Below are positions 9,623 to 58,547 of a DNA stretch of 64,000 bases, piece by piece. Positions within the stretch are counted from its first letter, which is position 1. The number at the start of each line of letters is the position of its first letter. The position numbers were made by a program, and so were the translations under genes. Where the stretch lies: assembly GCF_000316665.1 (NCBI RefSeq), contig NC_019678.1, positions 5,518,001-5,582,000 on the forward strand. The letters are read 5' to 3'. The DNA comes from Rivularia sp. PCC 7116 (GTDB lineage: Bacteria > Cyanobacteriota > Cyanobacteriia > Cyanobacteriales > Nostocaceae). The notes under the pieces were generated by a model. It was given only the letters and a program-made list of their open reading frames with translations. It was not told the origin of the DNA and searched no databases.

Positions 9623-9739
9623 AATTTCGCTCCAATATTTTCTAGATTTGTGTAATTCGGTTTGTTTTCCTTGATTTCTATAATGCTGCACCTACCTGAG
9701 ACAGCAATAAATGCTAAATGAGAAGTCAATAAGAGGTTT

Positions 9740-10285: not shown

Positions 10286-10535
10286 AACCTCACCCTCGCT
10301 TTACCTGCGGTAAATCTCTCCCTCTCCTTATTAAGGAGAGGGTTGGGACAAATCTCTCCCTCTCCTTCACAAGGAGAGGGTTGGGGTGAGGTTGATAATT
10401 TATGGTTAATTGCACGGGCAAGGATGCCCATCCCACAAGAGTTTCAGCAATTGAAATTAATTGTAGGGTGTGTTAGGGCACAAATAAATATTGTTTGAAA
10501 ACTACCATTTAAATCATGCCCTAACGCACCATCCG
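10286..10535. repeat. Block of fold-back repeats between convergent genes
   Basis: Positions 10287-10394 contain two nested CCTCACCC ... GGGTGAGG fold-backs, each with CTCTCCTT-AAGGAGAGGG stems. Positions 10464-10532 hold a palindrome GGTGTGTTAGGGCA / TGCCCTAACGCACC. No gene is supported. Confidence 0.7.
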
Positions 10536-10609
10536 ATATTTCGGTGTAAACTTAGGAGTTAAAAAACCTTACTAGACGCAGAATCGAGAGAAGACGTGGA
10601 GAGAAATGA

Positions 10610-43101: not shown

Positions 43102-43346
43102 ACCTCAATCCGTTTATTAAGAGTCGGGTTTATTGATGTTATCAAAAAATCGCAACACACGGTAGGGAGGAGAGAGATTTTGAAAGTAAGGAGTAAAGAG
43201 TTTTGAGCCGGTGCAAAGACGTAGTCTCAAACAATGTGAAATCAAGACTTAATATTTTTATCAAACAAGTCAACAAAGCACAGGTAATCTTTTTCCGCGA
43301 CTCGCTACTCTTAACTGCTAACTGTTCACTGCTCACTGCTAACTGC

Positions 43347-43682
43347 TCAATGATTGCTATTTTGTCTTTCGTTAAGTTCTTTTAATTGACGCTCCATAGC
43401 ATCGAAAGCATGACGAATTACTGCATCTACTGGTTCGTACTGAATCCCATCATCCGGGCTGCGATCTACAGCTAGTTCGTGAGAAGGTGGTACTGTAATA
43501 TCTAAACGCACTCGATATGGAGAACCGCTACTGGGATGGTCGTGTGCTTTTTCGATAGCTACGCGACAACTGCTGATATGGTCGCAAAATTTTTCTAATT
43601 TAGTAATCTTAGAGTTTACTAGTTCATCTAAAGCACCTGTTTTTTCTACACCGCGATAAGTAATTTCTGGCTGTACGTTCAT
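43347..43682 (-). CDS. HPF/RaiA-family ribosome hibernation factor
   Basis: 111 residues. The opening MNVQPEITYRGVEKTGALDE and the pattern KITKLEKFCDHISSCRVAIE fit the beta-alpha-beta-beta-beta-alpha fold of the sigma-54 modulation/HPF family, which binds the 30S decoding site when growth slows. It is the short form, lacking the long C-terminal dimerisation domain of cyanobacterial LrtA, and so is probably a second paralogue. It is preceded upstream (43703-43856) by a fold-back element. The start ATG 43682 is unambiguous. Confidence 0.8.
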   Translation of the reverse strand: MNVQPEITYRGVEKTGALDELVNSKITKLEKFCDHISSCRVAIEKAHDHPSSGSPYRVRLDITVPPSHELAVDRSPDDGIQYEPVDAVIRHAFDAMERQLKELNERQNSNH

Positions 43683-44242
43683 AAAATTTTACTTTGTATA
43701 TATATAGGAATCCGTTTTGAATATTGAAAAAATCTAGGTATTTGTAGGGTGTGTTACGACGCTAGTCTAACGCACCGAAACCCTTACATCATGGTGCGTT
43801 GCGCTTCGCGACAACACACCCTACGTATATTTCAAAAATCAATTAGGATTCCTATAGTTTGCAACCCGTCTAAGCAGAATAATAACGCATAGACGGTTAA
43901 TTAGTTTTAATGCAAATGCTCCTTATTTGACTTCTTTCTAAAAGATGAAATTTTGCGAATAGTATTCTATCTTACGTAGGATATTTAATCGCGAATTTAT
44001 TCTGTATTATTCTAAATACTTTTATTTTCAAACATAATTAATTACAAATTAAATTTGTATAATACGTGTTACTTTCATATAGAATATTTACAATTTTATA
44101 AAATAAATTTAATAACTCTTTTTATCTTCGTACATAATGTTTATTTCGTATACATTTATTAAACGATATTATCTGTAATATTAGTTGGAAATGCCTCAGT
44201 TGATATTAATAATTTATAAGAAATAAATACTTAATTGCAAAA
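43683..44242. other. Divergent spacer with one fold-back element
   Basis: Positions 43703-43856 are the fold-back element listed next. Positions 43857-44242 are very AT-rich with no supportable ORF. Confidence 0.5.
43703..43856. mobile_element. MITE-like element with TATAGGAATCC ends
   Basis: 154 bp with perfect 11-bp terminal inverted repeats TATAGGAATCC (43703-43713) and GGATTCCTATA (43846-43856). Nested inside are GTAGGGTGTGTTACGACG and its counterpart ACAACACACCCTAC, the same arms used by the GGTGTGTTACGG palindromes elsewhere. Confidence 0.75.
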
Positions 44243-45130
44243 ATGAGAAACTCGATTTATTCGCAATTAGAAGCTTATTTAGTTTCTAATGCAGCTATAG
44301 ATTGGCAAACAGGAAGCATTCCTAAATGTCAAATTCCTATTTATTCTAAAGGTATGCAAGCTAACGAATACTTTTTTAGCAATCCTTTATGGAATAAGAA
44401 ATATTTAGACAAGACTCATCGCAGCTTACCCTTTAAACAACGCTGGCAAGCAGCAATGGGTAGTTGGGACGATAAAATAGTGGTAGACATTGGCTGCGGA
44501 CCTGGTAATGTATATGCAACTGTAGGTGGCTCTCCAAAGTTGTTAATCGGTATTGATATTTCTTTAGGGGCTTTAAAGCTAGCTCGTAATCTTGGCTATA
44601 CGCCAATTTTAGCTGATGCTCATCATCTACCATTGATTGATGGATTTGCCGATATAGTAGTTCTAAATGCAACAATTCACCATTGTGATGACATGCAGAG
44701 AGTTCTAGCAGAAGCTGCTCGTATATTACGTCCCGGTGGTTTACTATTTACTGATGAAGATCCTCAAGTTAGTGCTTGGCAGCTCAAAAGCTTTGGTTTA
44801 TATATACGCAATATCCGTTATCCTATCTATCGAGCTATTAAGAGTAAACATTATTTACCATCAGAAGAAAGAATTGCTAGATGGAAATCTGAAGTTCAGA
44901 ATCAGATTCCTGGAGATGGTGTAACTTCAGAACTGTATCACCAAGTTTTACAGCCGTTAGGATTTGATATAAACCTATATTTACATAACTACGAAAGTGG
45001 CGCTGAGGTTCTTAATGGTGAAATAGGTAAGTCATCTTGGAGATTAAGATTAAGCCAATGGTTATCAGGTATTAATCCCAATTCTCCAGAAGCAGCGCAA
45101 TCTATTATGTGTATTGCCAGACGTAACTGA
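44243..45130 (+). CDS. Class I SAM-dependent methyltransferase
   Basis: 295 residues. SAM motif I is VVDIGCGPGNVYATVGG (near residues 77-93), an acidic strand end LLIGIDISLGALKLAR follows, then ADIVVLNATIHHCDD and the post-motif ARILRPGGLLFTDEDP. The C-terminal third (from about 190) is a cap-like region with QNQIPGDGVTSELYH. The N-terminal 70 residues (SKGMQANEYFFSNPLWNKKY) could bind the acceptor. Substrate unknown. It lies alone between a long AT-rich spacer and an exported hydrolase gene; no operon partner is clear. Confidence 0.85.
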   Translation: MRNSIYSQLEAYLVSNAAIDWQTGSIPKCQIPIYSKGMQANEYFFSNPLWNKKYLDKTHRSLPFKQRWQAAMGSWDDKIVVDIGCGPGNVYATVGGSPKLLIGIDISLGALKLARNLGYTPILADAHHLPLIDGFADIVVLNATIHHCDDMQRVLAEAARILRPGGLLFTDEDPQVSAWQLKSFGLYIRNIRYPIYRAIKSKHYLPSEERIARWKSEVQNQIPGDGVTSELYHQVLQPLGFDINLYLHNYESGAEVLNGEIGKSSWRLRLSQWLSGINPNSPEAAQSIMCIARRN

Positions 45131-45338
45131 TTATTTAGGATTTCCTATATATCCGGATTCAAAGAATCCATTGCGAGATAGGTTAAAAATCAATTACTGT
45201 ATATACTGCTAACAATTAATTAATTTTTGCAAAAGAATTATATTCAATCCTATTCTGATAATTTTTCATGCTTAAATCAGCTTTGTTTCGGGATTTTGCT
45301 GTAAAACCGGAGAAAGAGACACAACAAGCAGGAAAAGC

Positions 45339-46901
45339 ATGAGTTCAATTCGTATTGAAGCGGAAAATTATCAGGATGCTATCGACAGCACTATTGGTAA
45401 CAATGGTGGAGAATATCGCTTTGAGGATGTTGATATTCAATCAAGTAGGGATATCGATGGTGGTTATTCTCTGGGTTGGATTGATTCGGGTGAGTGGTTG
45501 ACTTACAATTTTACTGTTCCGACATCGGGAGAATATCGCTTAGTTTCCCGTATGGCTTCGGCACGAGATGGCAATCACAGCTTTACAGCAACTCTGGCAG
45601 GGCAGCAAACAAATTTTAATGTGGATAATACTGGCGGCTGGTGGAATTGGCAAAATGTCGAGTCTGCCAAAACTTTCTCGTTGGATGCAGGTAGTCATGA
45701 AATGCGTCTGGATATGCTCGGAAGTGTTTTCAATATCAACTACCTTGAGTTAATCCCCGTGTCTTCAATAAATAACAATAGCAGTAATTTAATTCATGGA
45801 GGTACGGGTAATAATTCCTTTTACGGCAGCAACGGAATAGATACTATTACCTATGATGCAGCAAGTTCTAGCATTGTTGCAGATTTAGGTAAAGGCAAAG
45901 TAATCCATAATTCAACAAATTCTTCTATGCAACCGTTTAAAATAATGCCTCTGGGTGATTCCAATACAGAAGGTTGGGGAAGCTGGGATTTAGGTGCTTA
46001 CCGCGATGATTTATGGAAGTTGTTTGACAACAGTAACTATAATATAGACTTTGTTGGTCCTCATAAAACAGGTCCTTCAGGCTTTGATAGAGATAATGCT
46101 GGATTCAGTGGATGGAAAATCGGTGAAATTGACAGTGCTGTAGATGGTTGGTTGAATGATGCTCAACCGGATATGGTGCTATTAATGATTGGTACTAACG
46201 ACATACTTCGCGATGATAATATCACTCAAGCACCCAGTCGTCTCAACAATCTGATAGATAATATTACCTATCAATTACCAGACACTCAGCTTTTAGTGGC
46301 TTCCATTCCCCCAATTAGCCGCACCGAATCACAAAAACAGCAGGCTATAACATTTAATTCACATTTACCAGGCATTATTGATAGTAAAGCTGCTCAAGGT
46401 AAAAATGTCAGTTTCGTAGATGTATATAGTGGATTAACGGCAGATGACTTACAGGATGGAGTTCATCCCACTGTAGAAGGTTATAGCAAGATTGCCGATA
46501 CTTGGTATGATGCAATTCTCGAACAAAACATTCCTCAAGATAGCTCCCAAGATACAATCAGCAACATCGAAAATATCATTGGTTCAAATTACGATGATGT
46601 AATTATAGGTAGCGCTGGTGCAAATGTAATTCAAGGTGGTGCTGGCAATGACACCTTAACCGGCGGCGGTAGTAGCGACACCTTTGTTTTAGGATTAGGA
46701 GAAGGAATTGATACTATCACCGATTTTGCAGTTGGTGAAGATTCTCTTCAACTATCAGATAATTTAAGTTTTCAAGATATTACCATTATTTATGGTTCCG
46801 GTAATGGCTACAACGACACCACGATTATCTATCAAGATGAAGCTTTAGCTGTATTAACTGGAATGGAAGCAGGTAGTCTTTCTGGCAGTGATTTTGTGTG
46901 A
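45339..46901 (+). CDS. Exported CBM6 - SGNH hydrolase - RTX repeat protein
   Basis: 520 residues. About 4-140 is a carbohydrate-binding module (CBM6-like; IRIEAENYQDA, GWIDSGEWLTYNF). About 205-395 is an SGNH/GDSL-type esterase: block I IMPLGDSNTEGWGS (Asn instead of Leu after Ser), block III LLMIGTNDI, block V DGVHPTVEGYSKIAD with the Asp-His pair. About 415-520 is a haemolysin-type calcium-binding RTX region (NVIQGGAGNDTLTGGGSSDT). An RTX fragment also precedes the esterase (LIHGGTGNNSFYGSNG). No signal peptide is present, so type I secretion is expected. It is likely a polysaccharide deacetylase or esterase acting outside the cell. AGGA lies 5 bases before ATG. Confidence 0.88.
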   Translation: MSSIRIEAENYQDAIDSTIGNNGGEYRFEDVDIQSSRDIDGGYSLGWIDSGEWLTYNFTVPTSGEYRLVSRMASARDGNHSFTATLAGQQTNFNVDNTGGWWNWQNVESAKTFSLDAGSHEMRLDMLGSVFNINYLELIPVSSINNNSSNLIHGGTGNNSFYGSNGIDTITYDAASSSIVADLGKGKVIHNSTNSSMQPFKIMPLGDSNTEGWGSWDLGAYRDDLWKLFDNSNYNIDFVGPHKTGPSGFDRDNAGFSGWKIGEIDSAVDGWLNDAQPDMVLLMIGTNDILRDDNITQAPSRLNNLIDNITYQLPDTQLLVASIPPISRTESQKQQAITFNSHLPGIIDSKAAQGKNVSFVDVYSGLTADDLQDGVHPTVEGYSKIADTWYDAILEQNIPQDSSQDTISNIENIIGSNYDDVIIGSAGANVIQGGAGNDTLTGGGSSDTFVLGLGEGIDTITDFAVGEDSLQLSDNLSFQDITIIYGSGNGYNDTTIIYQDEALAVLTGMEAGSLSGSDFV

Positions 46902-46951
46902 ATTTAGTTGTTAGTGCTTAGGAAAGTCCCCAACTGTTAACTGTTCACTGT

Positions 46952-47770
46952 TTAAAGCTGTAATTCTGCTAACCCTAAATACTTAACTCCTTCGGGTGTG
47001 GTTTCAAAACGACAGGGCAATACTTCTAATCCCATAGATACAGCTTGACGTAATAATCTACCATATAATGGGTCGGCATTATCACCGGGTGCAAAATGGG
47101 TGCAGTCGCTACGATTAATAAAATACAACATGACTCCACGACAAGAGGGTAAAAGTGCCATTAATTCCCGTAGATGCTTTTGTCCTCTTGTCGTTTCGGT
47201 ATCGGGAAATAAAGCTAATCTTTTATCAGTCCAAGTTGTATTTTTGACTTCTAAATATATCAGACGATTATCATTTTTTGGTAAGGTTATATTCTTTGTC
47301 GCCACAGAATTTGTATCTTCTAAATTATCTGTTAACGCAATTTGATTTGATAAATTAATTTCTTGCTGAGAAGGAAGCAAACAAAAATCTACTCGGCTTT
47401 TTCTATCTTGCCCGTAAACAACTTCGCTTTTAACTTCGTCGTATTTTCCTAATTCTGGAAAAATATATTTTTGCAGAGCTATTTTAATAATTTTATTCGG
47501 TAAACCTGTATTTACACCTACCCAAGTTGGTTCGTTATCGTGTAATTGAATCATTTCCCAGGTGTAAGCTAATTTACGTTTGGGGTTGTCAGATTTTGAT
47601 AGCTGTACTGAGTTTCCGGGGATATATACACCTTTCATGGGGCCAGTATTTGGGCAGTGGGCTGTTACAATTTCTCCAGAATCAAGTTCTACATCTGCGA
47701 AGAATCGCTTGTAGCGTTTTACTAAAGTTCCTGGATATAAAGTTGGGTAGCGGTAGATAAAGTCAGTCAT
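46952..47770 (-). CDS. sfsA: DNA/RNA nuclease SfsA (sugar fermentation stimulation protein)
   Basis: 272 residues. The N-terminal OB-like part has LVKRYKRFFADVELDSGEIV, AHCPNTGPMKGV and PGNSVQLSKS. The nuclease-like part has VDFCLL, YLEVKNTTW and FPDTETTRGQKHLREL, all SfsA signatures. The usual length is about 235-245; the excess is a low-complexity insertion after VDFCLLPS (about residues 131-165), absent from typical members. The Glu-x-Lys of YLEVKN is conserved, so activity is expected to be kept. The physiological role of SfsA is poorly defined. Monocistronic. Confidence 0.93.
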   Translation of the reverse strand: MTDFIYRYPTLYPGTLVKRYKRFFADVELDSGEIVTAHCPNTGPMKGVYIPGNSVQLSKSDNPKRKLAYTWEMIQLHDNEPTWVGVNTGLPNKIIKIALQKYIFPELGKYDEVKSEVVYGQDRKSRVDFCLLPSQQEINLSNQIALTDNLEDTNSVATKNITLPKNDNRLIYLEVKNTTWTDKRLALFPDTETTRGQKHLRELMALLPSCRGVMLYFINRSDCTHFAPGDNADPLYGRLLRQAVSMGLEVLPCRFETTPEGVKYLGLAELQL

Positions 47771-47981
47771 GTTAATAGTTAGGAGTTTGGAGTTTGGAAT
47801 TAGGAATTAGGAGTTGCTAATTATGAATTTAAAACTCAATGCCCAATGCCCATGCCCAATGCCCCATGCCCAATGCCCCATGCCCAATGCCCCATGCCCA
47901 ATGCCCAATTCCCATGCCCAATTCATAATTCGTCGGTTAGGATATGTATCTATAATTATGAATTGAGTCAATTTAACTGTT
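47771..47981. repeat. Tandem CCCAATG/CCCATG repeats before the TPR gene
   Basis: About 47838-47925 is built of near-perfect CCCAATGCCCCATG units (about 14 bp), another short tandem repeat. It lies between divergent genes, within 60 bp of the TPR gene start, so it may touch promoter spacing. Confidence 0.8.
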
Positions 47982-49256
47982 ATGGAACAAGAGTTTTTTG
48001 ATAAGGGTTTAGAAAAGGCGAAGCAGAAAGACTATGCTGGCGCTATTGAAGAATTTACCAAAGCACTGCAAGGGAATTCTGAGTTTGTCGAAGCTTATTA
48101 TCAACGAGGTTTAGCATACTACGATTTGGGACATGTAGCTCAAGCGGTTTTTGATTATGATCGGGTGTTAAAACGGGATTCTTATAATGTAGAGGCATAT
48201 TATTGTCGTGCTTTAGCTCGGTTAGCGCTGAAGAATTTACCCGGTGCTTTAAAGGATGTAAATAAAGTTATTGAAATTAATTCTTGTAAACCTGGTGCTT
48301 ACAATTTACGAGGTGTGATAGAGCGTAAATTGGGGAATATTGAAAATGCGATCGCTAATTTTAAGCAGGCTGCAAATTTATATTTGGAGCAGAAGGATAC
48401 TGAAAACGCAAAGCGGTGTTTGGAGAAGGTGAAGCAGCTACAACCCCGGAAACAAGAGGTTGTTTTAGAGAAGCCGCAGTTACAAAATACACCGTTAATA
48501 ACTGAGAAAGATTATTTTACGTCTTTATTAGAAAAGGCAGAGAAGGGAAGTACCCGCGAAGCGATGGAAGATTTGAATTGGGTGTTAAGAGCAGATGCTC
48601 AAGATGGGAAAGCTTACTGCTGTCGCGGGGTTGTGTATTGCAAAGAAGGTAAATATCAGCAAGCAATCGCAGATTTTAATACAGCGCTACAGTTGAATTT
48701 TCACGATGCTGTAGTTTATCGCAATCGCGGTAAAGCCCGGTTGCAGATGGGAGATAATCAAGGTGCGATAGCTGATTTTAATCAAGCTCTAAAAATAGAG
48801 CCGGAAGATGATTTAATTTATGTTGCTAGAGGTAATGCTTATCAAGCTATAGGTCATTATTTAGGTGCAATTGAAGATTATAATACAGCGCTACAGATGA
48901 ATCCTACTAGTGCGAGTGCTTTTTACAATCGCGGTTTATGTAATGTGCGGATGGAAGAAATTCCCCAAGCAATTAATGATTTTCAACAGGCTGCAAGTAT
49001 ATATTGCGAACAGGAAGATTGGGATAATTATAAAGTAGTTTCCCAAAGTTTGAAAAAACTTAGTACTCCGTCTGCTGAAGTGAATGAGAAAAATAACTAT
49101 GAAAGATTGCGCTATCGCTTGTTAAGATTAGTCGGTGGACAATGGGAAATTGCACAAAGATTAATCGAACAAGCCAGATATTATTATCCCGGTATGTCAG
49201 AGGAATGGTATATCGAAACGGTTATTCATGATTTAGAAAGGGATAAGGGTAGGTAA
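47982..49256 (+). CDS. TPR-repeat protein
   Basis: 424 residues. About eight tetratricopeptide repeats: four in 1-150 (AGAIEEFTKALQGNSEFVEA, AVFDYDRVLKRDSYNVEA) and four in 180-350 (QAIADFNTALQLNFHDAVVY, GAIADFNQALKIEPEDDLIY). The spacer (about 150-180) is charged. The C-terminal about 60 residues (LVGGQWEIAQRLIEQARYYY, SEEWYIETVIHDLERDKG) are a motif shared by many cyanobacterial TPR proteins. No enzyme domain or signal peptide; likely a cytoplasmic protein-protein interaction scaffold. Confidence 0.88.
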   Translation: MEQEFFDKGLEKAKQKDYAGAIEEFTKALQGNSEFVEAYYQRGLAYYDLGHVAQAVFDYDRVLKRDSYNVEAYYCRALARLALKNLPGALKDVNKVIEINSCKPGAYNLRGVIERKLGNIENAIANFKQAANLYLEQKDTENAKRCLEKVKQLQPRKQEVVLEKPQLQNTPLITEKDYFTSLLEKAEKGSTREAMEDLNWVLRADAQDGKAYCCRGVVYCKEGKYQQAIADFNTALQLNFHDAVVYRNRGKARLQMGDNQGAIADFNQALKIEPEDDLIYVARGNAYQAIGHYLGAIEDYNTALQMNPTSASAFYNRGLCNVRMEEIPQAINDFQQAASIYCEQEDWDNYKVVSQSLKKLSTPSAEVNEKNNYERLRYRLLRLVGGQWEIAQRLIEQARYYYPGMSEEWYIETVIHDLERDKGR

Positions 49257-49299
49257 TACTAATTTTAAATTTTATCTGTTTCCTACTCCTTGCTCCCTA

Positions 49300-50457
49300 T
49301 TAAGTTAATGTAACCTTGGCAGTCATGGGATTTGATACATTACTGTAGGATTTCAACAGTATTTGAGCGGTATCTACTGCTTCAATTTCCCTAATCATAA
49401 ATTCAATCATGGGTTTAGCAATAGAGCAGATTAATTCGCCTGTTTGATTGTAAATTCTTTCGCTGGGGCAAGCCTCTACAATTGGTAACTGATTGCAAGT
49501 TAAATCAAATGGGCATTTACGACAAGTAGCAGCGCGTTGTTTTCTAATCTTACAAACTTGCTGATATTCTTGAGAGTTAAATATTTCTGTTAGCGACTGT
49601 TGAAAAATATTTCCCATTAAACCTTCGGGAAGATAAGCTTCACCATCATTGTAAATATCTCCGTTAAGGTTAATAATCAATGCCCATTCTCTTTGGGCTG
49701 GATTATATTCATAAATTTTTTGCTTTGTTAAATATCGGGATGCGGCGGTAAAGTAATCGTAGAGAGGATAAATTTTGATTTTACTGGGAGACGCAAACTG
49801 TTTTTTAGCTACTTGTTGATATACTTGAATAATTTCTTGGGGAGTTAGAGCAAGATTTTTAACTCTTTCATCGCTTTCTGAATTAAGGCTAAAAATAGGT
49901 AAGATACGATAATCTATATTTAATTGATTGTAAAAATCAAAAGTCTGTAAAGCATGATTGTAGTTTTGACGATGCAAAACAGTAATTGCACCAAAAGGAA
50001 TTTCATTATCAATTAGTTTCTGAATATTTGGCAATACTTTATCTTGACTATCTTTTCCTTTGATATCTACTCTTTGATTGCCAAAAACATCAAACGAGAT
50101 ACCCAAATGTAAATTTAGTTCTTGGATTAAGTCAATAGTACGTTGCGGTAAATTAACTAAATTACTTTGTACCGAGTTTGAATATTCAATTCCTTGAGAA
50201 GCAAGATATTTTTTTTGCAATTGAACAAAAGTACGCAAATAGTCAGGAGGTAGTAACAGCGGTTCGCCTCCATGTAATATAAAATGAGGTTTAAACTCAT
50301 CTGGATTGGGCTGTAAATGAATATATTCAGCTAAACCTTGGAAAAAGAATTCTAATTTCTCCAATGACATCTTTTCTTTATTTGCCAGTTCTGTATATTC
50401 GTAACAGTAGTTGCAGCGTAAGTTGCAGAGTTTACTTAGTTTAATAATAAAGTGCAT
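49300..50457 (-). CDS. Radical SAM/SPASM peptide maturase, GrrM/OscB-like
   Basis: 385 residues. The SAM-cluster motif C-x3-C-x2-C is at Cys11, Cys15 and Cys18 (KLCNLRCNYCYEY); the GGE motif ILHGGEPLLLP follows near residue 65. The C-terminal SPASM region has CRKCPFDLTCNQLP and CPSERIYNQTGELICSIA, ligands for auxiliary 4Fe-4S clusters. The opening and the motifs LGISFDVFGNQRV and NGDIYNDGEAYLPEGLMGN resemble the GrrM/OscB family that forms cyclophane links in Gly-rich RiPP precursors. No Gly-rich GrrA/OscA precursor is seen beside it. Upstream on the same strand, 111 bp away, is an exported protein with duplicated C-x4-C-D-P motifs, a possible substrate. Confidence 0.85.
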   Translation of the reverse strand: MHFIIKLSKLCNLRCNYCYEYTELANKEKMSLEKLEFFFQGLAEYIHLQPNPDEFKPHFILHGGEPLLLPPDYLRTFVQLQKKYLASQGIEYSNSVQSNLVNLPQRTIDLIQELNLHLGISFDVFGNQRVDIKGKDSQDKVLPNIQKLIDNEIPFGAITVLHRQNYNHALQTFDFYNQLNIDYRILPIFSLNSESDERVKNLALTPQEIIQVYQQVAKKQFASPSKIKIYPLYDYFTAASRYLTKQKIYEYNPAQREWALIINLNGDIYNDGEAYLPEGLMGNIFQQSLTEIFNSQEYQQVCKIRKQRAATCRKCPFDLTCNQLPIVEACPSERIYNQTGELICSIAKPMIEFMIREIEAVDTAQILLKSYSNVSNPMTAKVTLT

Positions 50458-50507
50458 AATTTCTCGATTTGTAGGTTATATATCAATTTTCAGTTGGGTT
50501 CAACATA

Positions 50508-50552
50508 GTCGAAACCTCACCCCTTCCCCTCTCCTTCATAAGGAGAGGGAAA
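50508..50552. repeat. CCTCACCCC fold-back between the exported protein and the maturase gene
   Basis: CCTCACCCCTTCCCCTCTCC followed by TTCATAAGGAGAGGG, one more member of the CTCTCC family. It lies in the only gap of the presumed two-gene operon and could cause partial termination. Confidence 0.5.
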
Positions 50553-50568
50553 TAAAAAACAAACAATA

Positions 50569-51327
50569 TTATCGTTGAACGCTAGCAAAAATTGCTTTTA
50601 CATCTACCCTTTGAGGAATTGATAAATCACTTTTCTCATTAAAAGTAAATTTTCCTTGAGGAGGATCGCAAACTTTCGGATCGCAATTTATTTCTTGTCC
50701 TTTAATTGGTAGCTTTTGATTTTCTAAAATATATAAACCATCGGGAATTTTGACTCGCTGTTCCTCTACATCAAACGCAAAAACTTTACGTTCTTCAATA
50801 ATTAATTGAACAATTCCTAATTTATTAGCCAGCTTTTCTATTGGTAAATAACTAGCTTCTGGGTCTAAAACTAATGTCCAGCCTTGGTCCCAAGGGTCGC
50901 AAGGACCACCTCCACACTGTATCCAAATATCCTTATCTTTCTCTTCTTTCGATGTACCAAAGTAACCATCTATTTCCCGCCAGATTCCTTCTTCAACAAC
51001 TAATTTACCTCTTTTAGGAAACTCATAAATACCATCTGGAGCAACGGTTTTTTCTCCATTAGTAACTAAGAAAACTCGTCTATCCTTCATCAAGACTGAA
51101 CTAGCTTCATACTCTTTAATTAGAATCTCTGGAGTTAAAGGTTTTCCCTTAGCTAACAATGTACCTTCAGACAGCTTCAACTCTTGTGCGACAGCTTTTG
51201 GAGAGATGTTAGCGTTAAGGAATTGAGCCACTTGTCCAACCAGCCCCTGATTATATAAGCTGGCAAATCCTCCTGCGATTAAGATAGCTGTAACAATTGT
51301 GGTCTTACCTTTATTATTTCTCTGCAT
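50569..51327 (-). CDS. Exported protein with two C-x4-C-D-P repeats, candidate maturase substrate
   Basis: 252 residues, not recognised. The N-terminal hydrophobic segment is 10-24 (signal peptide or anchor; AVAQ near 45-48 may be a cleavage zone). The body is two related units: residues 83-152 (RRVFLVTNG ... PDGIYEF ... CGGGPCDPWDQGW) and 181-229 (RKVFAFDVE ... PDGLYIL ... CDPKVCDPPQG). Each has R-x-V-F, then P-D-G-[IL]-Y, then C-x4-C-D-P (Cys138/143 and Cys215/220). Those are the only cysteines. It is upstream of the radical SAM gene on the same strand. The Trp, Tyr and Phe residues near the Cys motifs are possible modification sites, but nothing in the sequence proves it. It could equally be a periplasmic structural protein. 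Confidence 0.65.
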   Translation of the reverse strand: MQRNNKGKTTIVTAILIAGGFASLYNQGLVGQVAQFLNANISPKAVAQELKLSEGTLLAKGKPLTPEILIKEYEASSVLMKDRRVFLVTNGEKTVAPDGIYEFPKRGKLVVEEGIWREIDGYFGTSKEEKDKDIWIQCGGGPCDPWDQGWTLVLDPEASYLPIEKLANKLGIVQLIIEERKVFAFDVEEQRVKIPDGLYILENQKLPIKGQEINCDPKVCDPPQGKFTFNEKSDLSIPQRVDVKAIFASVQR

Positions 51328-51975
51328 AATTAATTCAAAAAATCGCTGGTTTTGTGATTGTAGTTAAGTATTATTACACTAACCTAGTTTTATAGAATGT
51401 AACAATAAAAACATAATAACTTCAAGTATATTGAAGCAATGCAAATTACTGCAAAGCTCAATATGACTTTCAATTATTTCTACATATGTTTGGAGTTAGA
51501 TTTTTATGCAGCTTTTGAGAAATGAAAATAAATAACAATCTATCTCTCCTCTGCCATCCTCGGAAGAGTCTCAATTTTTATTTATATTACAGTGGGTTAT
51601 ACCAATTCTGTATGAGGCTGCGCTAAACGCCCTCACTCTGTAAGAGTGGGGCTAACCAAACAAAGCCCCTCTTCAGGGGCTGAATTCGGCGCATCTTTAT
51701 AAAGAAATGGTATTAGAAGTAATCAGGCTAGTACTCTACCAAGCCAGCTTTGCCGTGTAAAGATAGGGAGGGGGAGGAGGGGAAGAGGGGGTAGAAAATA
51801 ATTTTTTCTCGTGGTTAACCCCGCATAGTTGCCTTGGCAGACTACTAATTACGCAAACTTCAAACAAACTTTATGATATATAGAATTATTTACTAATGTA
51901 AATCTGAAATTCTGTAAGTAGATTATGTAGATATACGATTAACAGCTATATAAAGTCTGGTTTGGAGGATTTTGA
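51328..51975. other. Divergent 650-bp spacer with hairpins
   Basis: Between the exported protein and the VIT/PEP-CTERM gene. About 51630-51690 holds GCCCTCACTCTGTAAGAGTG with GGGC, and GCCCCTCTTCAGGGGC, two compact hairpins. About 51765-51800 is a G-rich GGGAGGGGGAGGAGGGGAAG run. No Gly-rich precursor-like ORF is visible on either strand. GGAGG at 51964-51968 is the ribosome site of the next gene. Confidence 0.5.
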
Positions 51976-54702
51976 GTGAAAACTTTTTGGAATGTAATTT
52001 TTCAAGCTATCTTTTGGCTATGGAATTTAGTTTTTTTGACAATAGTATATTTCTGGATATTACCTTTTCTAGCACCATTTTTATTTATTTCAACTTTATC
52101 AGGTGAAACTCCACTCGAATTTTCTTTAACTGTAGTTACTTTGATTGCAATTCCTACAGCTTGTACCATTATTGGTGCTAAAAAATTTATTAAACAACCA
52201 TTAAAGCTTATCCGTTTATTTTATGGTGTAGAAGCACCGTTATTTGTATTATGTTGCTTGCGGTTATTTATAATCCGAGAAACAACACCGGCGAGCGTTC
52301 ATATTATCGCTACTGCGGGTTTATCTATTGCAGCCTTTTTCGTAAATTTATTGTGGGGATATAACAACCGAAGTAAAACAGGTTTGCAGTGGATGCAGAT
52401 GCTAGCAAACAGTTTAATGATGCTATTTGGTGTGTATGCAGGAGCTTTATTACTGTTTTATGCTTTACCCTTTACAGTCGCTTTTACCAAAGAATTTTTC
52501 AAATTTGAGTGGGTAGATGGATTTTTATCTTCTGTGAGCTATGGAGGAATTTACGTACTTTTATTTTTCCTATTCTTTGCTTTAAGTAGTGCTTTATTCG
52601 CTATCATGCCTTCAGTCATGTCGGGGATGTATCTTTATTCCGGACAAAAACATATCCGAGCATTTGCCGCACAACATGGTAACAAAAAGGCTTTAGCAGG
52701 TATTAGTGGGGTTTTAACTGCTTCTGTAATTTTATTTGTTTCCTTACAGCAACAGCCGCAGGTACGGGCATTTTCCTTATTGAATAATTCTGCAACTACA
52801 GACAGTAGCCGCCAAGTTTTATTATCAAAATCCAATGAAATTAAATCGGGTTTGGTAAATGCTTATTTATCTTCCTATCGCTATCTGAGTAGCAGAAAAG
52901 ATAGTAATAATATCAGCGCTATGTATCGCGATTCTCTAGGATTAAACAAACCGGCAGCAGATTCGGTACAAGAAATTTACAACTTTTTAATATCACCTTT
53001 TTTGTATAATGGTTCCGAACAAGATATTGAGAAAGCAGAGAAACTTTACGAAGATTTTTTTGATAAAGCCATTCAAAAAGCTGAAGCACCAGCAATTACT
53101 CATGCCGTACAATCAACTTTTAATCAACAAGAAGTTAAAGCCGGTTTACTAAATATCAACGAGAAAAAAGTTTGGTTGGAATCCCAGGAAATTACAGTCA
53201 AAGAAAAAGGCGATCGCGCTGAAGTTGAACTCTACGAACTGTATAAAAACCAAACGCCAGAAGTTCAAGAAATATTTTATTACTTTTCGTTACCAGAAAG
53301 TGCAGTAATTACAGGTTTATGGTTAGGAGATACCAACGATAGAAATAAACGTTATGAATTCACAGTTTCTCCCAGAGGTGCGGCACAAAAGGTTTATACT
53401 TCTCAAGTAAGGAGAGAACGTCCTGTAGATCCAGCATTATTAGAACAAGTAGGACCTAGACATTATCGCTTAAGAGCATTTCCGATTCCTCGTAATAATG
53501 TACGACAAATAGAAAATCAACCGCCAATTCCCACAGAAATGAATCTGTGGTTAACCTATCAAGTCATGGTTGATGATAAAGGTGTTGCTTTACCAACTTT
53601 AGGAGAAAAGCGTAATATATATTGGACGAATAAAACCAAACGCATTCGCAACGGTAAACAGGTAAAAATAGATAAAGATGCTTGGTTAGAAGACTATATC
53701 AAAGTAGGAAAATCACAACCAAAATCTCACGAAGTTGAATTAACTGAAGGTTACAAAATTACAGCAAAACCGTTATCAAAGAAAGATTATTCCTTACCTG
53801 AAAATAAAAAAATTGCTTTAATTCTTGATTCTTCCCGCAGCATGGATTCCCACGTCAAGGAATTATCGCAAAATTTAACGTGGCTAAAAAAACATCACAA
53901 AAATAACGATGCAGACTTGTATATTGCCGCTTCCGGAACAAAACCGCAGCGTTTAGACGACATCCATAAATTCAAAGCTGATAAATTCACATTTTACGGA
54001 AGCTTGCAAACTCCCGAAATGTTGAAGCAATTCAATCAACTGCGAGGAGACACATCTTATGACGCAATATTACTCTTAACAGATGCCGGAAGTTACGAAT
54101 TGTCCAAAAATAACAAAGATATTCCTGAAACTTCTGCGCCTTTATGGATGGTACACAACGGTAAACTACCTTTTTCATATACCGACGGCATGATTAAAGC
54201 AATTCAAGATAGCGGTGGTGGAGTTTCGACTTCAGTTTCCGAAGTATTGCAAAGAATTGCCACAAAAAATAAACTGGGAGATTCAGTAATTGACGTAGTT
54301 GATGGTTACGCTTGGTACTTGGAAAAATCCGAGAATAATTCAACCCAAAAATCAAATAATTTTCAACAACTTGCAGCTAGACAATTAATAAGAGGATTGA
54401 GCAAACAAGTTAAATTAGATAACTTAAAAGGCTTAGATGCAATTCATGCTGTAGCTAAGAAGTATAAACTAGTTTCGCCTTATTCTTCGATGTTAGTGTT
54501 AGTAAATGACGAACAAAGACGTTTATTAAAAGAAGCAGAAGCATCAAAAGATAGATTTGATAGAAAATTAGAAAGTGGAAAAGAAGATTTAACTAAACCT
54601 AGTAATCCTTTAAAAGCCAGTTCACCAGAACCTTCTAATGGATTGGTGTTAGCTGGAAGTGGGTTATTGTTGCTTTGGATTGTGAAGCGGAAAAAGAAAT
54701 AG
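51976..54702 (+). CDS. Multi-pass membrane protein with VIT and vWA domains and PEP-CTERM-like tail (TIGR02921-type)
   Basis: 908 residues, starting at GTG 51976 with GGAGG 7 bases upstream. The N-terminal 270 residues hold about seven transmembrane helices. About 395-511 is a VIT-like domain (VELYELYKNQTPEVQEIFYY, RPVDPALLEQVGPRHYRLRAF). About 610-760 is a vWA domain with intact MIDAS DSSRSMDS and later LLTDAG. The last 26 residues (SPEPSNGLVLAGSGL, then a basic RKKK tail) form a PEP-CTERM-like signal. This matches the unusual multi-pass PEP-CTERM family TIGR02921 of unknown function. It is divergent from the maturase pair. Confidence 0.88.
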   Translation: MKTFWNVIFQAIFWLWNLVFLTIVYFWILPFLAPFLFISTLSGETPLEFSLTVVTLIAIPTACTIIGAKKFIKQPLKLIRLFYGVEAPLFVLCCLRLFIIRETTPASVHIIATAGLSIAAFFVNLLWGYNNRSKTGLQWMQMLANSLMMLFGVYAGALLLFYALPFTVAFTKEFFKFEWVDGFLSSVSYGGIYVLLFFLFFALSSALFAIMPSVMSGMYLYSGQKHIRAFAAQHGNKKALAGISGVLTASVILFVSLQQQPQVRAFSLLNNSATTDSSRQVLLSKSNEIKSGLVNAYLSSYRYLSSRKDSNNISAMYRDSLGLNKPAADSVQEIYNFLISPFLYNGSEQDIEKAEKLYEDFFDKAIQKAEAPAITHAVQSTFNQQEVKAGLLNINEKKVWLESQEITVKEKGDRAEVELYELYKNQTPEVQEIFYYFSLPESAVITGLWLGDTNDRNKRYEFTVSPRGAAQKVYTSQVRRERPVDPALLEQVGPRHYRLRAFPIPRNNVRQIENQPPIPTEMNLWLTYQVMVDDKGVALPTLGEKRNIYWTNKTKRIRNGKQVKIDKDAWLEDYIKVGKSQPKSHEVELTEGYKITAKPLSKKDYSLPENKKIALILDSSRSMDSHVKELSQNLTWLKKHHKNNDADLYIAASGTKPQRLDDIHKFKADKFTFYGSLQTPEMLKQFNQLRGDTSYDAILLLTDAGSYELSKNNKDIPETSAPLWMVHNGKLPFSYTDGMIKAIQDSGGGVSTSVSEVLQRIATKNKLGDSVIDVVDGYAWYLEKSENNSTQKSNNFQQLAARQLIRGLSKQVKLDNLKGLDAIHAVAKKYKLVSPYSSMLVLVNDEQRRLLKEAEASKDRFDRKLESGKEDLTKPSNPLKASSPEPSNGLVLAGSGLLLLWIVKRKKK

Positions 54703-55140
54703 GGGATTGAACATAATACAAACCTCACCCCGCCCTGCGGGCACCCCTCTCCTTATTAAGTAGAGGGGAAGTTAGTAGTTAGTAGGTTGGGTTAGACACG
54801 TTCGCGAAGCGTGTCCGGAGGACATAAACAAATTCAGGTTGTAATTAAAATTTGTGTTTATCGTGTCGTAACCCAACATTAAAATTGCGGATAAATATAA
54901 TGTTGGGTTACGTTTCAAATATAGATTATTTGTTTAGAACTAATTGATAGTTAACCTAACCCAACCTACGAATATATCTCTATTACTTCTTTCCTCTGCG
55001 TACTCTGCGCCCTCTGCGGTTTTTTTTAATCCGTAATTTATTGAATTGAGAAAATATTAACTAATTGACGTTGGGTTACGGTTCAAATTTACGTTATTTG
55101 TTTACAACTAATTGATAGTTAACCTAACCCAACCTACGAA
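54703..55140. repeat. Cluster of CCTCACCCC and TTGGGTTACG palindromes
   Basis: Positions 54722-54768 are a CTCTCC fold-back. Positions 54783-54880, 54901-54970 and 55069-55138 are three palindromes with arms GTTGGGTTACG / CTAACCCAACCTACG; the last two are almost identical to each other. Between them, near 54987-55025, is a CTCTGCG short repeat. No gene. Confidence 0.8.
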
Positions 55141-55824
55141 TTACCAATTACCAACTAAAGAAACAACTTCCTGTAAATCGGTAATAAAATAATCTGCTTC
55201 TTGCTTAACTTTTTCTCTCACTGCATATCTACCAAAACCGATAAACATATCAATAACGGGTTTGCTTTCTAAATCGCTGACACCATCACCAATAGCTACT
55301 ATTTTGTTGGGAGAATATTTCTCTCGTAAACTTTTGACAACTTCGGGTTTACCACCGTTACGTGTTGAGGGATAATTGTGGTCAAAGTCGCGATAGCTGC
55401 CATCTTCGTTAAAATAAAGGTCAACAGCTTCGATAAATTCTACACCAAGATAATCGGCTAAAGGTTTGATTGCTTGACGATAACCACCACTCAAAATAAT
55501 TGGTGTCCAACCTCGATCTTTCAAAGTTGTAATAACCTGCTTCGCGGAAGGTTCAACTGTATCGATATATAACTTACCAACTTTAGAAACAGAATCGGCA
55601 GAAGGTTGAATAATTTCCAAACGTTTTGCAAAAATACTTTCTAAAGCAATCTTCCCTTCCATAGCTTGGGCAGTCATTTTCTCAATTTCTTGAGTAGCTG
55701 ACTCACCAGCAGCACGTGCTAACTCATCAACCCCTTCAATACTGCTCAAAGTACTGTCGCAATCAAAAATAATAATCTTATCGTATTGGCTCGTCATATC
55801 TTCAAAACCCATAACCACGAGCAT
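55141..55824 (-). CDS. HAD-family phosphatase, phosphoserine phosphatase-like
   Basis: 227 residues. HAD motif I is IIIFDCDSTLSSIEGVDELA (nucleophile Asp plus Asp two residues later, followed by the SerB-like S-x-I-E-G-V-D-E cap start), motif II is ILSGGYRQAI, and motif III/IV is KVVAIGDGVSDL-like (NKIVAIGDGVSDLESK). This is the arrangement of SerB, which releases serine from phosphoserine; a related sugar or lipid phosphatase is possible. Three candidate starts (55824, 55812, 55797) precede motif I, and the last gives MTSQYDKIIIFD, the most compact. Its stop lies directly after a palindrome and its start beside another pair. Confidence 0.82.
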   Translation of the reverse strand: MLVVMGFEDMTSQYDKIIIFDCDSTLSSIEGVDELARAAGESATQEIEKMTAQAMEGKIALESIFAKRLEIIQPSADSVSKVGKLYIDTVEPSAKQVITTLKDRGWTPIILSGGYRQAIKPLADYLGVEFIEAVDLYFNEDGSYRDFDHNYPSTRNGGKPEVVKSLREKYSPNKIVAIGDGVSDLESKPVIDMFIGFGRYAVREKVKQEADYFITDLQEVVSLVGNW

Positions 55825-55857
55825 CTTATCAATATTTGGTTGTTAATTGTTAGTTAG

Positions 55858-56024
55858 TAGGTTGGGTTAGACACGAAAAGTCAATTTCCCTTGTAACAGA
55901 AATCTTTGATAATCGTGTCGTAACCCAACACCATGATTGTGAGTGAATATTATGTTGGGTTACGGTTCAAATTTAAGTTATTGCTTTACAAGCAAATTTG
56001 CAGTGAACCTAACCCAACCTACAA
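55858..56024. repeat. Two tandem TTGGGTTACG palindromes
   Basis: Positions 55858-55930 have arms GTAGGTTGGGTTAGACACG and CGTGTCGTAACCCAAC. Positions 55952-56024 have arms TGTTGGGTTACGGTTC and GAACCTAACCCAACCTAC. The same pairing occurs at 54783-54970 on the other side of the phosphatase gene. Confidence 0.8.
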
Positions 56025-56086
56025 ACTAATTTCCCTGTTAACAATTACCAATTACCCATTGCCAATTACCAACTTATAATTATTAA

Positions 56087-58042
56087 ATGCGATTTTTATC
56101 TTTATTTTTTGCTACTCTGCTTGCAGTAATCTTACTACCTATCCCGATGGTTGCTGCTGTTACTCCTATTACTCCTGGAGACAATCTTGTTGTTGAGGGA
56201 ATTCCGTCAATTCCTTCAGATATAGTACAGAAAGTTGAACGCTATACTCAGTTTCGTTCTGCTGGTATTTCTAGCTGGCATCCCACAAAGCGTGAAATGC
56301 TGATTTCCACCCGTTTTGCAGATACGCGACAAACACATTATGTTAAATCTCCCCTGGCTACTCGTCAACAGTTAACGTTCTTTCCAGAACCCGTTCGCGG
56401 TGCGAGTTTTCAACCTAGCGACGGTAATTATTTTGTCTTTAGTAAAGATGCTGGAGGTAATGAATTTAACCAAAATTATCGCTATGACTTAGATACCGGG
56501 GAAACTACTCTATTAACCGATGGTGAATCAAAAAACAGTCGTGGTGTATGGTCTAACCGTGGCGATCGCATGATTTACACTTCCACTCGCCGCACGGGTA
56601 ATGATGCTGATTTTTACATTATTAATCCGCAAATTCCCGCAAGCAATAAGTTGTTAACCCAAAATGAAGGTGGTGGCTGGTACGGTTTGGATTGGTCGCC
56701 AAATGATGATAAATATTTAGCGTTGCAGTATGTTTCGGTGAATGAAAGTTATCTATGGTTGGTTGATACTTCTACAGGTGAGAAGCAACGGCTATTACCT
56801 TCATATGGTGAAGAAAAGATTTCTTACGACGGCGGTTATTTTAGTAAAGATGGCAAAGGCTTATATGTAATTACAGATAGGGATTCCGAGTTTTCCCGGT
56901 TGGCTTATGTTGAACTCGATACTTTGCAGCATACCTATCTCAGCAAAAAATTTCGTTGGGATGTCACAGATTTTGACCTTTCCGACGACGGTAATTTCTT
57001 AGCTTTCGTTACTAACGAAGATGGTACTGGAGTATTACACATATTAAATACTGCTACCCGTCGTTTCAAACGTTTACCAAAGCTTCCTATCGGTCAAGTT
57101 TACGGTATCAGATGGCATAATAATAACCAAGATTTAGGTTTTACACTGATTTCAGCGAAATATACTGCCGATGCTTACTCTTTAAATATTCGCAACAACA
57201 AAGTTGAGCGTTGGACATTAAGCGAAACTGGTGGTTTAAATACTAGCAGCTTCTCAGATGCTGAATTAGTAAGGTGGAAGAGTTTCGACGGTAGAACAAT
57301 TTCCGGCTTTTTATATCGTCCTCCCGCTAAGTTTACCGGAAAACGTCCGGTTATTATCAACATTCACGGCGGTCCGGAATCGCAGTTTCGTCCTTCTTTT
57401 TTGGGAAGATATAATTACTACCTGAATGAGTTGGGGGTTGCGGTTATATTTCCTAATGTCAGGGGTTCGACGGGATACGGCAAGACTTTTACTAAGTTAG
57501 ATAATGGTTTTCGTCGGGAAGATTCTGTTAAAGATATCGGTACATTACTTGATTGGATAGCAACGCAACCGGAATTAGATGCAGATAAAATTTTAGTTAC
57601 TGGGGGAAGTTATGGTGGCTATATGTCTTTGGCTGTGGCGACGAAATACAGTGATAAAATTAAAGCTGCAATTGATATTGTGGGGATTTCCAATTTTGTC
57701 ACCTTCCTCGAAAATACCAAAGGTTATCGCAGAGATTTGCGACGGGTGGAATATGGAGACGAAAGAGATCCAAAAATGCGAGAGTTTCTAGAGAAAATTT
57801 CTCCGACAAATAATGCTGAGAATATCAAAGTGCCGTTATTTGTAATTCACGGTAAAAATGACCCCAGAGTACCGTTAATAGAAGCCGAACAAATAGTAGA
57901 AACAGTGAGAAAGAATGATGTCCCGGTGTGGTATTTAATGGCGAAAGATGAAGGGCATGGATTTAGGAAGAAGAAGAATATTGACTTTCAGTTTTATTCT
58001 ACCGTGATGTTTATTAAGGAGTTTTTGATTGGTAATGGGTGA
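56087..58042 (+). CDS. S9-family prolyl oligopeptidase-type serine peptidase, exported
   Basis: 651 residues. The signal peptide is about 1-24 (FATLLAVILLPIPMVAAV). About 50-390 is a beta-propeller with WSPNDDKYLALQ-type blades (TolB-like). About 400-651 is an alpha/beta-hydrolase domain: INIHGGPESQF oxyanion block, nucleophile elbow VTGGSYGGYMSLAV (Ser near 508), Asp in HGKNDPRVP (near 592) and His in KDEGHGF (near 624). This is the dipeptidyl aminopeptidase/acylaminoacyl-peptidase arrangement, cleaving short peptides, here probably in the periplasm. Preceded by paired palindromes; monocistronic. Confidence 0.93.
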   Translation: MRFLSLFFATLLAVILLPIPMVAAVTPITPGDNLVVEGIPSIPSDIVQKVERYTQFRSAGISSWHPTKREMLISTRFADTRQTHYVKSPLATRQQLTFFPEPVRGASFQPSDGNYFVFSKDAGGNEFNQNYRYDLDTGETTLLTDGESKNSRGVWSNRGDRMIYTSTRRTGNDADFYIINPQIPASNKLLTQNEGGGWYGLDWSPNDDKYLALQYVSVNESYLWLVDTSTGEKQRLLPSYGEEKISYDGGYFSKDGKGLYVITDRDSEFSRLAYVELDTLQHTYLSKKFRWDVTDFDLSDDGNFLAFVTNEDGTGVLHILNTATRRFKRLPKLPIGQVYGIRWHNNNQDLGFTLISAKYTADAYSLNIRNNKVERWTLSETGGLNTSSFSDAELVRWKSFDGRTISGFLYRPPAKFTGKRPVIINIHGGPESQFRPSFLGRYNYYLNELGVAVIFPNVRGSTGYGKTFTKLDNGFRREDSVKDIGTLLDWIATQPELDADKILVTGGSYGGYMSLAVATKYSDKIKAAIDIVGISNFVTFLENTKGYRRDLRRVEYGDERDPKMREFLEKISPTNNAENIKVPLFVIHGKNDPRVPLIEAEQIVETVRKNDVPVWYLMAKDEGHGFRKKKNIDFQFYSTVMFIKEFLIGNG

Positions 58043-58547
58043 TTGGTAATGGGTAATTGGGCATGGGGAGCATCCTAATTTTTAATAAATATTTAACCCC
58101 ACAGGCTATAAGCCTGGGGCTAATATTGCCAAGCCCACCTTCGTGGGCTAAGAAATCTTGTAGCCCACGAAGGTGGGCTTCGTTTATGTAGCCCCAGGCT
58201 TATAGCCTGCGGGGTTTTGACACAATTGGGATGCTCTCAATTTGAATTGATTAAATCATTGTTTAATAATTGTAGGGTGCTGTGACACTTAGAGAAATTT
58301 TGAAAGTGAAAAAGAAGTTTTATAGTGTCACGCACCTGAAGAACCATTTTTATAATTGTAGGGTACTAATTTAAATTTCCTCTCTCTAACTCTTCCTCTG
58401 CGCTCTCTGCGCTCTCTGCGGTTTTTTTCTCATTCCGATGTAACCAAAGAAAACCGTCATTGCGACGAAGGAAGCAATCCCAATATCTCCACTACCAACG
58501 AGTTAATGCGATTGCTTCGTTTCACTCGCAATGACAAAAACTAATAA
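58043..58547. repeat. Spacer made almost wholly of palindromic and short repeats
   Basis: Positions 58095-58217 are a long composite palindrome. Positions 58272-58345 are a GTAGGGTGCTGTGACACTTA / AGTGTCACGCACC element. Positions 58392-58432 are CTCTGCG tandem units. Positions 58453-58537 are a GTCATTGCGACGAAGGAAGC / TCACTCGCAATGAC palindrome. No gene. Confidence 0.75.
58095..58217. repeat. Nested long palindrome of about 123 bp
   Basis: The outer arms AACCCCACAGGCTATAAGCC and GGCTTATAGCCTGCGGGGTT differ at one base. The inner arms AAGCCCACCTTCGTGGGCTA and TAGCCCACGAAGGTGGGCTT are perfect reverse complements. It could form a very stable cruciform or transcript hairpin after the peptidase gene. 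Confidence 0.85.

What the first reader, a model, noticed from the sequence alone, without database searches (positions are those of the whole stretch)
49300..51327. Candidate undescribed peptide-modification pair: GrrM-like radical SAM maturase plus an exported protein with duplicated C-x4-C-D-P units
Seen: a radical SAM/SPASM protein with intact C-x3-C-x2-C, and upstream on the same strand a 252-residue exported protein made of two units, each R-x-V-F ... P-D-G-[IL]-Y ... C-x4-C-D-P. Known: GrrM/OscB enzymes modify Gly-rich precursors (GrrA/OscA). No such precursor is seen nearby. Inference: the duplicated Cys/aromatic motif protein may be the alternative substrate or a partner binding the modified product.
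Basis: partly seen in the sequence, partly recalled or inferred. Interest (0 to 1): 0.7.

Follow-up and report, generated by a model that had tools for sequence, protein, structure and literature searches.

The report
Radical-SAM enzyme with exported protein substrate
This cyanobacterium carries a two-gene cassette: an exported protein and an enzyme that most likely staples tryptophan side chains in it, which would be an unusually large, protein-sized relative of known ring-containing peptides.

Summary
In detail: a 385-aa radical SAM/SPASM protein (49300-50457, -) and, upstream, a 252-aa exported-type protein of two units (50569-51327, -). The pairing is real: in 217 family genomes the enzyme clade and the exported-protein family occur in the same 9; in 388 order genomes again in the same 9. 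Of 24 family genes found, 21 lie at an enzyme locus. "GrrM-like" is not supported: 83.7 bits against a cut-off of 310; sulfatase maturase and DynA score higher, also below cut-off. The likely site is not C-x4-C-D-P but Trp-x-[Glu/Gln/Asp/Arg]: 39 of 42 Trp in 15 relatives against 40% in shuffles. Two unlinked paralogues keep a Cys pair but have no Trp and no C-terminal element. I propose a triceptide-like system: the maturase docks on a C-terminal helix, cross-links Trp(i) to residue i+2, and the product is exported as a large protein. The cross-link is inferred, not shown. Of two held-out members one fits and one does not. More distant enzymes pair with signal-peptide or Nif11-leader precursors with Phe/Trp-x-polar motifs. 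New variant of a known kind.

The parts
49300..50457 (-). radical SAM/SPASM maturase, 385 aa
   Evidence: found with the exported-protein family
50404..50427 (-). C11-x3-C15-x2-C18 radical SAM cluster motif
   Evidence: invariant in the 23 aligned rows, window included
49426..49524 (-). C-terminal SPASM cysteines C312, C315, C321, C344: the only four further invariant Cys, fitting one auxiliary Fe-S cluster (inferred)
50569..51327 (-). 252-aa exported-type protein, proposed substrate
51184..51327 (-). N-terminal export region, residues 1-48, ending in an A-x-A-type site (AVAQ); conserved GL..Q....L pattern
   Evidence: alignments; export inferred from sequence
50986..51138 (-). unit 1 domain (RRVF ... 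PDGIY ... VVEEG), about residues 64-114
   Evidence: limits approximate
50872..50982 (-). Trp segment with W116-R-E, W135-I-Q, W146-D-Q, W150-T-L, residues 116-152: proposed modification sites (first three)
50893..50916 (-). first C-x4-C-D-P, residues 138-145
50704..50847 (-). unit 2 domain (RKVF ... PDGLY), about residues 161-208
   Evidence: limits approximate; internal duplication also seen in two L044 genes
50662..50685 (-). second C-x4-C-D-P, residues 215-222, no Trp in this unit
50578..50601 (-). C-terminal element VKAIFASV, residues 243-250, proposed enzyme recognition helix
   Evidence: 17 of 18 linked family members match the pattern

Best explanation
The two genes form a minimal modification system that works like a triceptide (three-residue cyclophane) pathway, with a precursor that is a protein rather than a small peptide. 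The exported protein is made with a signal peptide, one or two small repeated domains, a Trp-rich segment and a short C-terminal element. The radical SAM enzyme binds the C-terminal element (inferred). It then abstracts hydrogen from residue i+2 of Trp-x-[Glu/Gln/Asp/Arg] motifs and joins that carbon to the Trp ring, losing 2 Da per ring (inferred). The product is exported, cut at A-x-A, and remains outside as a roughly 200-residue protein with one or more strained rings beside, in many members, a Cys pair (inferred). Shown by sequence: the pairing, the motif enrichment, the C-terminal element, and the absence of both Trp and element in two unlinked paralogues. Not shown: the bond, the order of steps, and the biological role.
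For: Co-occurrence: 9 of 217 family genomes have each gene, the same 9; 9 of 388 order genomes have the exported family, the same 9 as have the clade-A enzyme; 3 of 15 in another family have each, the same 3 (these three are also in the order set). Fisher p 4e-16 and 2e-18, not corrected for shared descent. Motif: 39 of 42 Trp have D/E/N/Q/R/K at +2 in 15 linked precursors (3 near-copies dropped; 48 of 54 with them), shuffle mean 0.40, 0 of 2000 shuffles as high; no other offset from -3 to +4 exceeds 0.57. C-terminal element in 17 of 18 (500 shuffles: mean 1.2, largest 5). Two unlinked paralogues (L070, L072) have no Trp and no element but keep a Cys pair. A third (L074) is short, lacks the domain and Trp, and follows the same 371-aa gene that precedes the linked pair in G130 (L039), with no enzyme after it. 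Held-out G754, not used for the profile, has WGE, WLR, WNK and an end VIDTWNKI (read by eye). More distant enzymes (29-35% identity) have upstream precursors with a polar residue at +2 for 68 of 88 W/F (0 of 2000 shuffles) and AVDTF-type ends in 12 of 16; one of these has a Nif11 RiPP leader above its cut-off. Cross-links between i and i+2 by SPASM enzymes are the known triceptide chemistry (PMC11002830, passages read).
Against: No mass or NMR data. The best-scoring profiles are sulfatase maturase and DynA, not the known cyclophane families, and none reaches its cut-off. The +2 residue is often Gln or Glu, whereas the review passages I read name Asn, Asp, Arg, Ser and Ala as partners. One window Trp (WTL) and two others among the 42 do not fit (WLW, WEC). 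Held-out member G813 fails: 142 aa, WKL, no C-terminal element; it may be truncated. 3 of 24 family genes are unlinked. The two informative paralogues come from one genus and may reflect one event. Both structure models were too poor to use. Distant-clade precursors were picked by eye as the upstream ORF, and the C-terminal pattern was widened after seeing them. Genome searches score only a limited number of first-look candidates per genome, so weak members could be missed.
Confidence: 0.6

Rival explanations
1. The enzyme modifies the Trp segment with a different chemistry: a Trp ether or C-N bond as in daropeptides or dynobactin, a larger ring, or epimerisation.
For: DynA and DarE profiles outscore GrrM (134.6 and 107.4 against 83.7 bits). 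Darobactin and dynobactin cross-links involve Trp (PMC11002830 and PMC9055067, passages).
Against: The polar residue sits at +2 in 39 of 42 Trp, while +3 is polar in only 9 of 42. That spacing fits a three-residue ring better than the Trp i to Asn i+3 bond of dynobactin.
Confidence: 0.2
2. The enzyme forms thioether cross-links on the Cys pairs (ranthipeptide-like, or like the quinohemoprotein amine dehydrogenase maturase).
For: Two C-x4-C-D-P motifs in the window protein, and close Cys pairs in 12 of 18 linked members. PapB (66.7 bits) and TIGR03906 (36.8 bits) profiles match below cut-off.
Against: 6 of 18 linked members have no close Cys pair; two unlinked paralogues keep a pair but have no Trp and no C-terminal element.
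Confidence: 0.07
3. The true substrate is elsewhere, and the exported protein is a partner that binds or presents the product.
For: No direct biochemical link; short ORFs of 20-55 aa exist around the pair, and their conservation was not tested.
Against: The exported protein itself carries the variable Trp motifs and the C-terminal element, and both are absent in two unlinked paralogues. In the more distant clade the gene in the same position is, in the one case scanned and matched, a Nif11-leader RiPP precursor (L021).
Confidence: 0.08
4. The enzyme is an anaerobic sulfatase maturase making formylglycine.
For: TIGR03942 is the top profile (134.7 bits), and the closest solved structures by sequence are anSME and the ChlB radical SAM domain.
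Against: Score far below the cut-off of 349.45; earlier SPASM cysteines of anSME have no counterpart; no sulfatase recognised by eye among the ORFs listed at 42000-60000.
Confidence: 0.03

Closest known systems
Triceptides / three-residue cyclophane-forming enzymes (XncB, OscB/GrrM, MscB, YxdB, HaaB, YhhB)
   Same: SPASM radical SAM enzyme next to a precursor rich in aromatic-x-polar triplets
   Different: No known cyclophane-maturase profile reaches its cut-off; the 18 linked precursors analysed are 171-295 aa with one or two domain units, and the +2 residue is often Glu or Gln; ligands of only one auxiliary cluster are invariant
Dynobactin maturase DynA and darobactin maturase DarE
   Same: Among the highest-scoring profiles; act on Trp in a precursor
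   Different: 134.6 against a cut-off of 450 and 107.4 against 650; spacing of the motif differs
Anaerobic sulfatase maturating enzyme (4k36, 4k37)
   Same: Closest solved structure by profile search, E 3.8e-27; by single sequence it ties with ChlB radical SAM domain 9gm3, E 7e-9 to 9e-9
   Different: Earlier SPASM cysteines of anSME absent here; its substrate is a sulfatase
MicC alpha-ketoglutarate oxygenase (PDB 9vkm)
   Same: A profile of six oxygenase-like proteins from beside more distant relatives of this enzyme matches it, E 1.9e-37; a similar region is fused to two such enzymes in G668 (by eye)
   Different: No such gene noticed by eye next to the window pair or in the clade-A ORFs printed (L045-L047 and L054 were fetched but not read); no paper on MicC was found
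Nif11-leader RiPP precursors (TIGR03798)
   Same: One precursor of the more distant clade matches above cut-off (L021, 36.2 bits against 32.3)
   Different: The window protein has a signal-peptide-like N-terminus instead

Membership tests
GrrM/OscB maturase with GrrA/OscA precursor | Enzyme reaches TIGR04261 cut-off (310 bits) | tested here: not met
   83.7 bits, 82.3 in the genome search; the same profile rings below cut-off in 9 of 14 control genomes
GrrM/OscB maturase with GrrA/OscA precursor | GrrA-type Gly-rich precursor (TIGR04260) in the genome | tested here: not met
   0 matches in own genome; the profile rang in 1 of 14 control genomes, below cut-off
Triceptide (three-residue cyclophane) | SPASM radical SAM enzyme linked to a precursor gene | tested here: met
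Triceptide (three-residue cyclophane) | Aromatic-x-polar triplets enriched in the precursor | tested here: met
   39 of 42 Trp, 0 of 2000 shuffles as high
Triceptide (three-residue cyclophane) | Reaches a curated profile of a known cyclophane maturase | tested here: not met
   GrrM 83.7, AmcB 74.9, YhhB 74.6, FxsB 65.5, XyeB 34.9 bits, all far below cut-off
Triceptide (three-residue cyclophane) | C-C bond from ring to beta carbon of i+2 | not testable with these tools
   needs MS/NMR
Dynobactin/darobactin maturase | DynA cut-off 450, DarE cut-off 650 | tested here: not met
   134.6 and 107.4 bits
Anaerobic sulfatase maturase | TIGR03942 cut-off 349.45 bits | tested here: not met
   134.7 bits
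Anaerobic sulfatase maturase | Two auxiliary clusters (feature recalled) | tested here: not met
   only C312, C315, C321, C344 are invariant besides the radical SAM motif; earlier SPASM cysteines missing in the alignment to 4k36
Ranthipeptide/thioether systems | Conserved Cys plus acceptor residue in the precursor | tested here: not met
   no close Cys pair in 6 of 18 linked members

The most novel reading that the evidence does not exclude
An undescribed family of protein-sized triceptides. A secreted, domain-bearing cyanobacterial protein carries Trp-x-Glu/Gln cyclophanes as built-in staples, put in by a one-auxiliary-cluster maturase guided by a C-terminal follower helix. The same follower logic would serve a second clade that swaps signal-peptide and Nif11 leaders.
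Probability: 0.4. Interest if true: 0.68.

Novelty: new variant of a known kind. Interest (0 to 1): 0.52.

Why it matters
If true, it extends ring-forming radical SAM chemistry from short peptides to exported, domain-bearing proteins, with Glu/Gln as likely bond partners and a recognition site at the C-terminus in place of a leader. It offers a test set: linked precursors with 1 to 5 Trp, members without a Cys pair, and unlinked paralogues as natural negatives. It would also name a substrate for an enzyme clade whose scanned members reach no curated NCBIfam cut-off.

Tried and rejected
GrrM membership: rejected on score and on absence of GrrA. Sulfatase maturase: rejected on score and cysteine pattern. 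Cys pair as target: set back by its patchy presence and by the unlinked paralogues. A hidden short precursor: ORFs of at least 20 aa around the pair were listed and none stood out by eye; their conservation was not tested. Pfam, NCBIfam and PHROGs for the exported protein and the relatives scanned: nothing above a cut-off, and no PHROGs match at E up to 0.1 for two of them. PDB by profile for the exported family: nothing at E up to 1. Structure predictions with four close sequences: mean pLDDT 47.6 and 43.1; no fold search was run on them. Promoter and terminator scan of 49200-52000: counts near those of shuffles. A first C-terminal pattern written for clade A found 0 of 16 in the distant clade; I widened it after looking at those sequences, so 12 of 16 there is a fitted description with shuffles as the only control. 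The pattern for clade A was likewise written from the sequences it was counted in (17 of 18). Of the held-out members, G754 carries a similar end read by eye (its W in place of F/L would miss the written pattern) and G813 has none. Literature: searches listed no paper whose title or abstract start describes this family; of the papers listed I read passages of three (PMC11002830, PMC9062424, PMC9055067). The two main triceptide papers were seen only as citations in PMC11002830.

Full report
What is there. The window lies in a cyanobacterial genome of 8.73 Mb in 3 contigs. Its three close relatives in the genome collection are Plectonema cf. radiosum, Rivularia and Richelia records. On the minus strand a 252-aa exported-type protein (50569-51327) is followed, 111 bases later, by a 385-aa radical SAM/SPASM protein (49300-50457). 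Both look constrained: dN 0.156, dS 0.712 and dN 0.084, dS 0.741 against L025. The flanking genes, a TIGR02921 PEP-CTERM-family membrane protein and a TPR-type repeat protein (my reading of the sequence), are also seen beside the pair in L023-L025 (by eye).

The enzyme. It carries the radical SAM motif and a SPASM domain over Pfam cut-offs. None of the 25 NCBIfam models shown reaches its cut-off: sulfatase maturase 134.7 (cut-off 349.45), DynA 134.6 (450), DarE 107.4 (650), GrrM 83.7 (310). In an alignment of 23 rows the only further invariant cysteines are C312, C315, C321 and C344. Against the sulfatase maturase chain 4k36 the first three of these match cysteines of the C-terminal SPASM part, and the earlier SPASM cysteines have no counterpart; reading this as one auxiliary cluster kept and one lost rests on recalled knowledge of anSME. 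By single sequence the ChlB radical SAM domain (9gm3) and anSME score alike. The relatives split into clade A (14 rows, 52-87% identity to the window) and clade B (9 rows, 29-34%), separated with full support in an unrooted tree of these 23 rows. No other family was in that tree.

The pairing. A single-sequence search for the exported protein finds it in 6 of 118 family genomes, all among the 12 of 118 with an enzyme match. With a profile of 14 members, 9 of 388 order genomes have the exported family; they are the 9 clade-A genomes among the 15 of 388 with an enzyme match. In 217 family genomes, 9 have the clade-A enzyme (E up to 1e-90) and the same 9 have the exported family. In another family 3 of 15 have both. 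A phylum sample gives the enzyme, both clades together, in 10 of 386, one of them outside the order. Presence is patchy even within the window's genus: G083, G805, G807 and G808 have neither. Over I count 24 exported-family genes, of which 21 lie at an enzyme locus; the three others are G130 at 1096428 and G301 at 1622193 and 1038414. The searches score a limited number of first-look candidates, so weak members may be missed.

Anatomy of the exported family. The 14 aligned members share an export-type N-terminus with invariant G, L and Q (GL..Q) and an A-x-A-like end, then a small domain with an invariant G-x-Y. After it come a Trp segment and, in 17 of 18 linked members, a C-terminal element such as VRDTFERI. 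The window protein's duplication has a parallel: G129 has five family genes in one locus, one truncated and two with the whole unit repeated. In the window only unit 1 has Trp.

The Trp motif. In 15 linked members (three near-copies dropped), 39 of 42 Trp are followed at +2 by D, E, N, Q, R or K; shuffling gives 0.40 on average and never as high in 2000 tries; with the near-copies it is 48 of 54. The exceptions among the 42 are window W150 (WTL), WLW in L043 and WEC in L044. Phe and Tyr show no such bias in clade A (43 of 164 at +2). The 18 linked members analysed leave out a truncated G129 gene and the two held-out genes described below.

Natural negatives. Two unlinked paralogues (L070, L072) keep the export region, the domain and a Cys pair (CVGGSCD) but have no Trp and no C-terminal element. 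The third (L074) is short, without domain or Trp; it follows the same 371-aa gene that precedes the linked pair of G130 (L039), with no enzyme after it. So Trp and C-terminal element track the enzyme, and the Cys pair does not. All three are from one genus, so they may reflect few events.

Held-out members. G754, G813 and G806 were found after the profile was made. G806 is a near-copy of the window's genus type. G754 fits: WGE, WLR, WNK and an end VIDTWNKI. G813 does not: 142 aa, WKL, no C-terminal element, perhaps truncated.

The wider clade. Upstream of clade-B enzymes I picked by eye 16 exported or Nif11-like peptides from 15 loci. In them 68 of 88 W or F have a polar residue at +2 (0 of 2000 shuffles), and 12 of 16 end in an AVDTF-like element. 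Of these peptides, three were scanned and one (L021) matches the Nif11 leader above its cut-off; others look Nif11-like by eye. Several loci have a downstream oxygenase-like gene; a profile of six matches MicC, PDB 9vkm (E 1.9e-37), with invariant H-x-D and distal H. In G668 a similar region is fused to the enzyme in two genes (by eye). This ties the wider clade to RiPP maturation.

Mechanism. The best reading is a triceptide-like system: docking on the C-terminal element, a bond from the Trp ring to residue i+2, then export. Triceptide enzymes bond i and i+2, with Trp to Arg, Asn or Asp (PMC11002830, passages). Here Glu and Gln are common at +2, which would be a new partner. I put 0.8 on the exported protein being the substrate and 0.6 on the full statement.

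Limits. No chemistry was tested, both structure models were poor, co-occurrence p values ignore descent, patterns were written from the sequences they were counted in, and the main triceptide papers were not readable here.

Noticed in passing
L044 (G129:C1:2824457-2840197), 4574-11786: Segmental duplication: two near-identical enzyme copies, five exported-family genes (one truncated), and an ORF at 7167-7676 whose start matches the beginning of the reductase-like ORF at 11789-12721 and whose end differs.
   Followed up: partly
L082 and L087 (G668): Clade-B radical SAM enzyme fused to an oxygenase-like region in two adjacent genes, with a Nif11-like peptide ending SAVELFQSLVSES upstream.
   Followed up: partly
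L021, L019, L018, L053, L017, L022: Oxygenase-like proteins of about 300 aa beside clade-B enzymes, invariant H-x-D and distal H; two scanned have no Pfam match; a profile of the six matches PDB 9vkm MicC.
   Followed up: partly
window 50527-50549 and six other places (6473, 10320, 10358, 30868, 54745, 61701): Palindromic repeat CCCTCTCCTT-NNN-AAGGAGAGGG, 7 matches with up to 2 mismatches, 0 expected; one copy lies between the two genes and folds as a hairpin.
   Followed up: partly
L070, L072, L074: Exported-family paralogues away from any enzyme: two keep a Cys pair but have no Trp, one is short and sits in the place where G130 has the linked pair; their own role is unknown.
   Followed up: partly
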